Assembly: GCA_009392075.1 (NCBI GenBank)
Contig: VFHG01000026.1
Coordinates: 1-6,720, forward strand
Direction: 5' to 3'
Length of the DNA stretch: 6,720 bases
DNA from: SAR202 cluster bacterium
GTDB lineage: Bacteria; Chloroflexota; Dehalococcoidia; UBA3495
Under the pieces are notes generated by a model. It ran no database searches, was not told the origin of the DNA, and was given only the letters and a program-made list of their open reading frames with translations. Shown here in pieces: positions 2,213 through 3,697 of the stretch (position 1 is the first letter of the stretch; each line of letters opens with the position of its first letter). The position numbers and the translations under genes are program-made.

Positions 2213-3697
2213 ATGAGCAGCCGCCAATTCACCGGTAAACTGGCCGCGCCTGAATTCCCCCAAGGATTGGAGTGGATTAACTCGGACCGCCCGTTGACCA
2301 TGCAGGAGCTCCGGGGAAAAATCATCATCCTGGATTTCTGGACCTACTGTTGAATCAACTGCGCCCATATATTCCCGCAGTTGCGGAGACTGGAAAAGAA
2401 ATACGCCGGCGAATTGGCCGTGATCGGCGTCCATTCGGCAAAGTTCCCCAACGAGAAAGACACCTATAACCTGGACAAGGCCGTTCGCCGTTACCAACTT
2501 GAGCACCCGGTGATCAACGACGGTCAGTTTCAAGTCTGGCAGCAATACTCCTGCCGGGCCTGGCCCACTTTGATGTTCATCGACCCTGTGGGCAATGTCG
2601 TCGGCAAACATGAAGGTGAGATGTCCTTCGAAGCCTTTGACGGGCTGATCAGCCAGATGGTGGCTGAATACGATTCGGATGGGACTTTGGACCACAAGCC
2701 CCTGCCATCCAAATTCCAACAGACAGAGGTGACCACCCTCAGTTTCCCGGGCAAGGTGTTGGCTGATGGGCCCGGAAATAGGCTGTTTATAGCCGACACC
2801 AACCACAACCGCATCGTTGTGACGGCGCTGGACGGTAGCGTGAAGCAAGTCATTGGCAGCGGAGAAGAAGGCCTGGCCGATGGCGAGTTGGCTAAGTCCG
2901 CATTCAACCATCTGCAAGGAATGGCGCTGGACAGCGAGACGCTTTACGTAGCCGACACTGAAAACCATGCGATTCGCCGGGTAGACCTGAGTTCAAGCAC
3001 GGTGAGCACGATCGCCGGCACGGGCGAGCAGGGTCACACCAAAGAAGAGCGGGGCCACGGGCCGTCGATGGCCCTCGTTTCTCCCTTTGATCTGGTGCAT
3101 CAAGAGGGGACTCTTTACATCGCCATGGCCGGTATCCACCAGCTATGGTCAATGGACCTGAAGGACGGCATGATCGGCCCGTTTGCCGGCACCGGCGGGG
3201 AAGCCATCACCGACGGGCCACTGGGCACTGCGGAACTGGCCCAGCCATGCGGTATCACCACCGACGGGACCAAGCTATTCTTCGCCGACAGCGAGACCAG
3301 TTCAGTGCGTTCGGCGGACATCGACCCGGAAGGCAATGTCCGAACGATCGTGGGCCTGGACCTTTTCGTGTTCGGAGATGTTGACGGATCAGACCACCAC
3401 GTCCGCCTGCAACACCCCATCGGTATCACTCATTACGACGGTGTGCTGTACATCACAGACACTTACAATCACAAGGTCAAGCGGGTACTACCGGCCATGA
3501 GGAGCGCATTCACCGTCCTTGGCAACGGCGCTGCCGGTCATGTGGACGGCGCTGCGGAACAGGCCCAATTCTCGGAACCTAGCGGCATCAGTTTCGCAAA
3601 CGGCAACATGTACATAGCCGACACCAACAACAACGCCATAAGGGTGGCAGACATTGAGTCAGGCGTGGTTTCCACATTGGAAATCTCGGGAATCTAG
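2213..3697 (+). CDS. Selenocysteine-containing thioredoxin-like NHL beta-propeller protein (NHLRC2-like), read through TGA at 2351
   Basis: With TGA at 2351-2353 read as selenocysteine, this encodes 494 residues. Residues 1-150 or so are a thioredoxin-like domain: ELRGKIIILDFWTYC, then Sec47, then INCAHIFPQLRRLEKKY, IGVHSAKF, and the WPT cis-proline loop (Pro118). Bacterial relatives and animal NHLRC2 have Cys-Cys-Ile-Asn-Cys here, so Sec47 replaces the first Cys of CxxC, giving UxxC with resolving Cys50. Residues 150-494 form an NHL propeller with six repeats, at FIADTNHN (192), YVADTENH (245), YIAMAGIH (302), FFADSETS (356), YITDTYNH (413) and YIADTNNN (467). No signal peptide is seen, so it is probably a cytoplasmic thiol/selenol oxidoreductase; its substrate is unknown. 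The reading frame stays homologous on both sides of the TGA, with GGAGA before the ATG and a SECIS-like hairpin after the TGA. A TGC/TGT-to-TGA mutation or sequencing error is the main alternative. Confidence 0.85.
2351..2353 (+). other. In-frame TGA, predicted selenocysteine codon (Sec47)
   Basis: The codon sits between TGT (Cys46) and ATC-AAC-TGC (Ile-Asn-Cys50), replacing the catalytic cysteine of a thioredoxin CxxC. Replacement of a redox Cys by TGA is the hallmark of bacterial selenoproteins. Upstream and downstream protein both match the family in the same frame, so there is no frameshift. Tryptophan elsewhere in this gene and its neighbours is always TGG, which argues against general UGA reassignment to Trp. 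Confidence 0.83.
2356..2383 (+). repeat. Perfect 8-bp inverted repeat just after the TGA (competing hairpin)
   Basis: CAACTGCG (2356-2363) is the exact reverse complement of CGCAGTTG (2376-2383), with a 12-nt loop. It is mutually exclusive with the AGUU hairpin. Its loop starts only 10 nt after the TGA and begins with C, so it fits bacterial SECIS rules less well. It could still be the lower part of an unusual SECIS, or an alternative fold that affects readthrough. Confidence 0.5.
2371..2391 (+). promoter_or_regulatory. Candidate bacterial SECIS stem-loop
   Basis: CCGC (2375-2378) pairs with GCGG (2383-2386) around the loop AGUU (2379-2382). Below a bulged A2387, C2374-G2388 and U2373-A2389 extend the stem. 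The loop starts 25 nt after the TGA, is four bases long, has G as its second base and contains GU. These agree with the general description of bacterial SECIS elements, which lie inside the coding region just after UGA and are bound by SelB through a G/U-containing apical loop. The bulged U of the E. coli fdhF element is not evident. Function is inferred from structure and position. Confidence 0.55.

What the first reader, a model, noticed from the sequence alone, without database searches (positions are those of the whole stretch)
2213..3697. Thioredoxin-NHL protein is a selenoprotein: in-frame TGA replaces the first CxxC cysteine
Reading from the ATG at 2213 through TGA 2351-2353 gives one continuous family-like protein, with DFWTYC-Sec-INC in place of the family's DFWTYC-Cys-INC. 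Conservation continues without frameshift on both sides, the TGA hits the catalytic Cys exactly, and UxxC is a known redox selenoprotein arrangement. I am not aware of this thioredoxin-NHL (NHLRC2-like) family being a standard textbook selenoprotein family, so it may be new or little described.
Basis: partly seen in the sequence, partly recalled or inferred. Interest (0 to 1): 0.93.

Follow-up and report, generated by a model that had tools for sequence, protein, structure and literature searches.

The report
Selenium form of the NHLRC2/SOQ1 protein
The gene appears to carry a stop codon that is read as the selenium amino acid selenocysteine at the reactive spot of a protein related to a human disease protein and a plant photosynthesis protein of unknown chemistry, which suggests that this spot does redox work.

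Summary
ORF 2213-3697 reads through one TGA (codon 47) as DFWTYC-U-INC. Codon 47 is TGA in 80 of 80 loci returned by a genome scan (51-96% identity); 13 relatives chosen for lacking a stop carry Cys there. A 7-bp hairpin with loop AGUU, 25 nt after the TGA, covaries over 107 distinct sequences and is missing in 11 of 11 Cys forms tested. Of 20 relatives' genomes, 17 have tRNA-Sec, 17 selA, 16 selB, 20 selD, and selD itself is TGA-type in 20. In 48 of 120 TGA-type loci the same gene also ends in TGA, so UGA is not simply reassigned. The protein is a Trx-NHL protein like human NHLRC2 and plant SOQ1 (39-41% identity). A 119-family inventory of prokaryotic selenoproteins names no such family. The kind (UxxC thioredoxin-fold selenoprotein) is known; this family as a selenoprotein appears new. 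Its chemistry is inferred; there are no expression data.

The parts
2213..3697 (+). Trx-NHL selenoprotein gene (494 aa with Sec at 47)
   Evidence: read-through translation; Pfam Thioredoxin_8, AhpC-TSA, NHL; SOQ1/NHLRC2 by sequence and fold
2204..2207 (+). GGAG, Shine-Dalgarno-like, 5 nt before the ATG
   Evidence: sequence
2351..2353 (+). in-frame UGA read as Sec (codon 47), first residue of UxxC, second of CUINC
   Evidence: TGA in 80 of 80 scan loci; TGA in 120 of 131 loci examined, the other 11, chosen for lacking a stop, with Cys codons
2372..2389 (+). SECIS-type hairpin; in the window 4 G-C pairs and the loop, then one C.A mismatch, then 2 pairs
   Evidence: covariation over 107 sequences; stem of at most 3 bp in 11 of 11 Cys forms
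2379..2382 (+). apical loop AGUU, 25 nt after the UGA
   Evidence: AGTT in 115 of 120 TGA loci
2381..2383 (+). TTG Leu codon in the hairpin, which is the start of the 438-aa ORF
   Evidence: TTG in 95 of 95 loci
2246..2668 (+). thioredoxin-like domain (about residues 12-152)
   Evidence: Pfam, PDB matches, model
2729..3691 (+). NHL propeller (about residues 173-493)
1603..2127 (+). 174-aa protein without Pfam match, upstream neighbour (linkage recurs; role unknown)
   Evidence: no Pfam hit; a homologue encoded in 35 of 80 loci

Best explanation
The gene encodes a cytoplasmic (no signal peptide seen by eye) two-domain selenoprotein, a thioredoxin-like domain followed by an NHL propeller, with the architecture of NHLRC2 and of the lumenal part of SOQ1. 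The UGA at codon 47 is decoded by tRNA-Sec and SelB, guided by a hairpin that starts 18 nt after the UGA and whose AGUU loop lies 25 nt after it (supported by comparison, not by experiment). Sec47 and Cys50 form a UxxC redox pair, with Cys46 beside it as a possible third player. By analogy with Trx-fold UxxC selenoproteins, Sec47 would be the attacking nucleophile and Cys50 the resolving thiol that releases the substrate by forming a selenenylsulfide. The motif would sit in the cleft between Trx domain and propeller, where the propeller would hold the substrate (inferred from the human structure). The substrate is unknown.
For: (1) TGA at codon 47 in 80 of 80 scan loci and in 120 of 131 loci in all; the other 11 have TGC or TGT. 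(2) The codons before the TGA evolve as protein. (3) Codons 24-35 nt from the U of UGA are nearly fixed even at synonymous sites: CCG 90, CAG 94, TTG 95, CGG 89 of 95. The hairpin they form has 96.3% of cells paired and 44 double changes; 0 of 500 shuffles reach either, and slid versions have at most 17 double changes. A stem of 7-8 bp is found in 110 of 120 TGA loci and at most 3 bp in 11 of 11 Cys loci. (4) Of 20 genomes, 17 have a tRNA-Sec with anticodon TCA, 17 selA, 16 selB, 20 selD, and selD has the TGA in its xAGUxxK site in 20; all four in 16 of 20. (5) In the phylum of G007, 43 of 43 genomes with the TGA form have a selA match (E at most 1.3e-127), against 243 of 301 genomes over the cut-off (tallied by hand). 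(6) The same gene ends in TGA in 48 of 120 TGA-type loci and prfB is over its cut-off in 19 of 20 genomes, so UGA is also a stop. (7) Model pLDDT 94; best folds SOQ1 (TM 0.94) and NHLRC2 (TM 0.92).
Against: No expression, 75Se or mass-spectrometric data. The window's own genome is not held; in G001, the genome of the closest locus, selB is only a C-terminal fragment below the cut-off. G004, G005 and G015 have no tRNA-Sec, selA or selB over the marks used, though they have TGA-type selD. The window's hairpin has a C.A mismatch and only 4 contiguous pairs. Short stretches of the window do not fold better than shuffles (z -1.2 to 0.0) and a rival helix is their MFE. In the slide control the +1 version has 5 pairs with double changes against 4 and as many further pair types. 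Four TGA genes from the phylum of G014 have another sequence there; three of the four fold a 7-8 bp hairpin with another loop, one does not. Human NHLRC2 did not reduce insulin (PMC6107167, passages), so oxidoreductase chemistry is not proven for the family.
Confidence: 0.93

Rival explanations
1. UGA is reassigned in these genomes in general (to Cys or Trp), not recoded by context.
For: None of the six genes that I recognise in the window ends in TGA (two TAG, four TAA).
Against: 48 of 120 TGA-type loci have genes that themselves end in TGA; prfB over its cut-off in 19 of 20 genomes; tRNA-Sec and selA/B/D present; hairpin tied to the UGA form; Trp would fall where relatives have Cys.
Confidence: 0.01
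2. The real protein starts downstream (TTG 2381, 438 aa), as databases annotate; the TGA is a true stop of an upstream remnant or leader.
For: 120 of 120 listed database homologues have such lengths; the mechanical ORF list gives the same.
Against: The upstream codons evolve as protein and match SOQ1 in one alignment across the TGA; the truncated form would lack the first strand and the active site of the Trx domain (model); Cys relatives read straight through.
Confidence: 0.03
3. Sequencing error or pseudogene in this contig.
For: A single window without read-level data.
Against: Same TGA in 119 other loci, some of them fetched twice; low dN/dS before the TGA.
Confidence: 0.01
4. Sec is inserted, but the protein is not a classical thiol-disulfide exchanger: the Sec site acts as a peroxidase-like or ligand-binding site, the propeller as scaffold.
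For: Human NHLRC2 negative in insulin reduction; the lipocalin change seen without SOQ1 is not reversed by DTT (PMC6107167, passages and section 17). A source calls fragments of this family alkyl hydroperoxide reductase.
Against: UxxC with Cys50 in 131 of 131 loci argues for a resolving thiol.
Confidence: 0.3

Closest known systems
NHLRC2 (human, 6gc1) and SOQ1 lumenal domains (7djj, 7djk)
   Same: Trx-like domain plus NHL propeller, CC(I/V)NC site (PMC6107167), 39-41% identity, TM 0.92-0.94
   Different: Sec in place of the second Cys of CCINC; none of the extra domains described for SOQ1 (HAD, membrane helix) or NHLRC2 (C-terminal domain), since the 494 residues end with the propeller
Prx-like thiol:disulfide oxidoreductase, Redoxin family and thiol-disulfide isomerase-like selenoproteins (UxxC; PMC13188914 Table 1)
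   Same: Trx-fold UxxC with Sec at the first position; the Trx domain here matches PF13905 and PF00578
   Different: These entries are listed by Trx-type domain; no entry names NHL or NHLRC2. I could not open their example sequences, so overlap at the Trx domain is not excluded
DipZ C-terminal Trx domain (2hyx, 5cyy)
   Same: best Trx-only structure by sequence, site SCINC (PMC6107167)
   Different: no NHL propeller, Cys at the site
Short TGA-bearing redoxins in genomes of the same two phyla (L191, L193)
   Same: EFWTHGUINC and AFWTYGUINC sites; L191 folds the same CCCGC-AGUU-GCGGG hairpin
   Different: open frames of only 190 and 196 aa matching residues 17-153 and 13-149; a third one fetched, L192, gave no match to my motif

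Membership tests
bacterial selenoprotein | in-frame UGA aligned with Cys of homologues | tested here: met
bacterial selenoprotein | SECIS hairpin just 3' of the UGA with G in the apical loop | tested here: met
   weaker in the window itself (C.A mismatch). The rule about the loop G is recalled
bacterial selenoprotein | tRNA-Sec, SelA, SelB, SelD in the host | tested here: inconclusive
   all four in 16 of 20 relatives' genomes; own genome not held; G001, genome of the closest locus, has selA, selC, selD and a selB fragment
bacterial selenoprotein | selenium in the protein | not testable with these tools
   needs 75Se or MS
NHLRC2/SOQ1 family | Trx8-type domain followed by NHL propeller | tested here: met
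NHLRC2/SOQ1 family | CC(I/V)NC motif | tested here: met
   met with Sec for the second Cys: CU(I/V)NC; Cys before position 47 in 117 of 120 TGA loci, Cys50 in 120 of 120
UxxC redox selenoprotein (works like) | redox turnover dependent on Sec | not testable with these tools
   inferred from the motif only

The most novel reading that the evidence does not exclude
NHLRC2 and SOQ1, whose chemistry is unknown and for which thiol-disulfide exchange has been argued against, belong to a redox enzyme family whose nucleophile is the second Cys of CCINC; bacteria of two phyla use Sec there, and Sec and Cys have been exchanged several times (5 changes on the tree, at least 3 forced by its supported branches). 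The Sec form is the handle with which the substrate in the Trx-propeller cleft can be found.
Probability: 0.55. Interest if true: 0.78.

Novelty: new variant of a known kind. Interest (0 to 1): 0.62.

Why it matters
NHLRC2 is essential, is mutated in the fatal FINCA disease, and its plant ortholog SOQ1 restrains a photoprotective quenching; its function was unknown as of the 2018 structure paper (PMC6107167, passages and section 17). Sec is costly and seldom kept where a thiol is idle (general knowledge), so its persistence here points to a catalytic site and gives a ready way to trap substrates. Databases hold the close relatives of this gene as headless proteins of 425-453 aa, some named alkyl hydroperoxide reductase, and a survey that requires CC(I/V)NC, as in PMC6107167, would pass over Sec forms. 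The TGA form was found in 43 of 301 and 12 of 95 genomes of two phyla (lower bounds, since few candidates per genome were scored), so re-annotation touches many genomes.

Tried and rejected
Rejected: general UGA reassignment, pseudogene or error, downstream start (see rivals). A longer-range helix (columns 6-12 with 27-33, the MFE for the window) shows no covariation: 0 double changes. RNAalifold's own consensus of A2 was weak (-0.55 kcal/mol) but its 5 pairs are all among the 7. Rfam had no SECIS match in the window. A scan of viral contigs for the UGA-hairpin pattern found 0. The Rfam tRNA-Sec cut-off alone is not specific here (over it in 19 of 20 genomes, and in 5 of 14 control genomes), so I counted only the 17 that ARAGORN calls tRNA-SeC. 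My first automatic look at selD picked wrong TGAs in 9 of 20 loci and was redone with the motif xAGUxxK. My motif searches missed many loci and were replaced by alignment or a wider motif. Rows dropped: L062 (N) and 12 identical rows before A2, leaving 107 of 120; the tree kept 121 different proteins of more than 430 residues of 131. One TGA locus (L019) has an in-frame TAG 45 codons after the UGA, unexplained; it fell out of the tree by length. Some of the 131 loci are the same place fetched twice (for example L011 and L109, L076 and L119). The 20 regions were chosen, 10 for having no stop and 10 for having a TGA, so TGA:Cys ratios are not frequencies. Four further partial matches cover codon 47 without a stop (G259, G179, G147, G176) and were not read.

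Full report
What is there. ATG 2213 to TAG 3697 reads as one 494-residue protein if TGA 2351-2353 is sense. The protein has a thioredoxin-like domain and NHL repeats. The nearest solved relatives are SOQ1 (E 1.7e-124) and human NHLRC2 (E 4.3e-108). An AlphaFold model from the window protein and 23 read-through relatives (Cys put for Sec) has mean pLDDT 94 and pTM 0.92 and matches SOQ1 at TM 0.94 and NHLRC2 at TM 0.92 by query length. The TGA stands where SOQ1 has the second Cys of CCINC.

It is not an odd copy. A scan of one genome per species returned 80 loci (the best 80 of 147 stretches that encode a relative). All 80 have TGA at codon 47 in a DFWT(Y/F)CU(I/V)NC setting, at 51-96% identity. 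Record titles name Dehalococcoidia, SAR202 and other Chloroflexi, Thermomicrobiaceae and Sphaerobacter, Rokubacteria, and one Proteobacteria MAG (L076; its genome G019 is drawn with the phylum of G007). With 30 loci from a search of 301 genomes of the phylum of G007 (Chloroflexota by its record title) and 20 regions fetched by design, codon 47 is TGA in 120 and TGC or TGT in 11 of 131 loci, the window included. In the phylum of the Rokubacteria genome G014 (GTDB's Methylomirabilota; the name is recalled), 12 of 95 genomes have a near-full-length match with one TGA and 2 of 95 one without; I read 11 of the 12 (all TGA) and both of the others (TGC).

The upstream part is coding. Between the window and eight relatives the codons before the TGA show dN of 0-0.19, with dS 0.16 to 2.08 in six and saturated in two. 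This argues against a leader or a remnant.

The signal. In 95 TGA loci the four codons CCG CAG TTG CGG, 24-35 nt from the U of UGA, hardly vary even where synonymous changes are free; Leu is TTG in 95 of 95. They form UUUCCGC-AGUU-GCGGAAA. On 107 distinct sequences the seven pairs have 96.3% standard cells, four pairs with changes on both sides and 44 such cells. Of 500 shuffles, 0 reach the cells paired, the double-change cells, the pair types or the covariation score, and 5 reach the number of pairs changed on both sides. The slid versions have at most 17 double-change cells, but the +1 slide has 5 such pairs against 4 and as many pair types. A rival helix has no double change. A stem of 7-8 bp occurs in 110 of 120 TGA loci; Cys loci have at most 3 bp in 11 of 11. 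When codons are redrawn among synonyms the stem is reached in 4.9% of draws on average; 89 of 120 loci lie under 5%. The window and a few close kin (L002, L004, L005, L046) carry TTC for TTT, which leaves a C.A mismatch above a four-pair GC core. Four TGA genes of the phylum of G014 have a different sequence; three fold CCAGAGC-UGGAC-GCUCUGG or like it, one does not.

The machinery. I searched 20 genomes that hold a TGA form, chosen from the 80 for spread. Rfam and ARAGORN agree on a TCA-anticodon tRNA-Sec in 17. selA is over its cut-off in 17, selB in 16 and selD in 20; selD itself has TGA in its xAGUxxK site in 20 of 20, with hairpins at a like distance where I measured them (for example AGGACCUG-GUC-CAGGUCCU). 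The three genomes without tRNA-Sec, selA and selB (G004, G005, G015) still carry TGA-type selD, which fits incomplete assemblies. In the sample of 301 genomes, tallied by hand, 43 have the TGA form (codon read in 39; the other 4 are partial matches) and 43 of 43 have selA. Of 11 with a full-length Cys form, 9 have selA, and G245 and G305 are not among the matching rows. selA overall: 243 of 301 over the cut-off. In the phylum of G014, 11 of 12 TGA genomes and 2 of 2 Cys genomes have selA, against 83 of 95 overall, so there the association is uninformative.

UGA remains a stop. Of 120 loci with TGA at codon 47, the next in-frame stop is TGA in 48, TAG in 46, TAA in 24, and 2 run off; but for L019 these lie at least 420 codons on. 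prfB is over its cut-off in 19 of 20 genomes.

Sec and Cys history. A quick tree of 121 proteins needs 5 changes between Sec and Cys, at least 3 forced by supported branches. Several Cys rows are on long branches, so the order is open.

Surroundings. A homologue of the 174-aa protein without Pfam match is encoded in 35 of 80 loci, and of dienelactone hydrolases in 33 of 80 (the two queries can hit one gene); in the 14 loci printed for each they lie upstream. Many loci are cut short, so these are lower bounds. prmC and prfA lie downstream on the other strand.

Known or new. The 2026 inventory of 119 prokaryotic selenoprotein families (PMC13188914, section 7 parts 1 and 2 of 3, which hold the table, and passages) names no NHL, NHLRC2 or SOQ1 protein. 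The words NHL and Chloroflex do not occur in its main text, nor in those of deep-Sep (PMC12013277), the GOS paper (PMC2398784; passages and section 9), the 2022 review (PMC9312934) or PMC5029168; PMC1088965 and PMC1794560 have no NHL (passages only unless said). Searches for NHL, NHL repeat or NHLRC2 with selenoprotein or selenocysteine listed nothing that looked relevant (listings only), nor did SAR202 or Rokubacteria with selenoprotein terms. NCBIfam has no model over its cut-off. Not seen: Haft and Tolstoy 2025 (not held), Deng 2026 (cited in the review, not listed), and all supplements. Trx-domain reads of this family may be lumped under Prx-like or Trx-like UxxC groups in the GOS work. 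So: new variant of a known kind.

How it likely works. Supported by comparison: UGA decoded as Sec, hairpin, machinery. Inferred: Sec47-Cys50 as redox pair, Cys46 as neighbour thiol. In human NHLRC2 the CCINC motif sits in the cleft between the domains with its cysteines reduced, and insulin is not reduced (PMC6107167, passages and section 17). Sec at this place argues that the site is catalytic toward a special substrate rather than idle; which substrate is not known.

Noticed in passing
window 1603-2127 (+): 174-aa protein with no Pfam match; a homologue is encoded in 35 of 80 related loci, upstream of the selenoprotein gene in the 14 printed; a partner candidate.
   Followed up: partly
window 63-773 and 816-1568 (+): Two dienelactone hydrolase genes in tandem, upstream in the same orientation; homologues in 33 of 80 loci.
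   Followed up: partly
L191 and L193; further short matches: Short Trx-only redoxins with in-frame TGA (GUINC site) in genomes of the same two phyla; L191 folds the same CCCGC-AGUU-GCGGG hairpin as the Trx-NHL genes.
   Followed up: partly
L167-L170: TGA-type Trx-NHL genes whose hairpin has another sequence; L167, L168 and L170 fold 7-8 bp with loop UGGAC or GGA, so the recoding signal seems to have been replaced while the Sec stayed.
   Followed up: partly
L019: In-frame TAG 45 codons after the Sec codon in one MAG; error or decay not decided.
   Followed up: no
window 4230-4478 (+): 82-aa ORF with no Pfam match and no tblastn match in the 80 loci; may not be a gene.
   Followed up: partly
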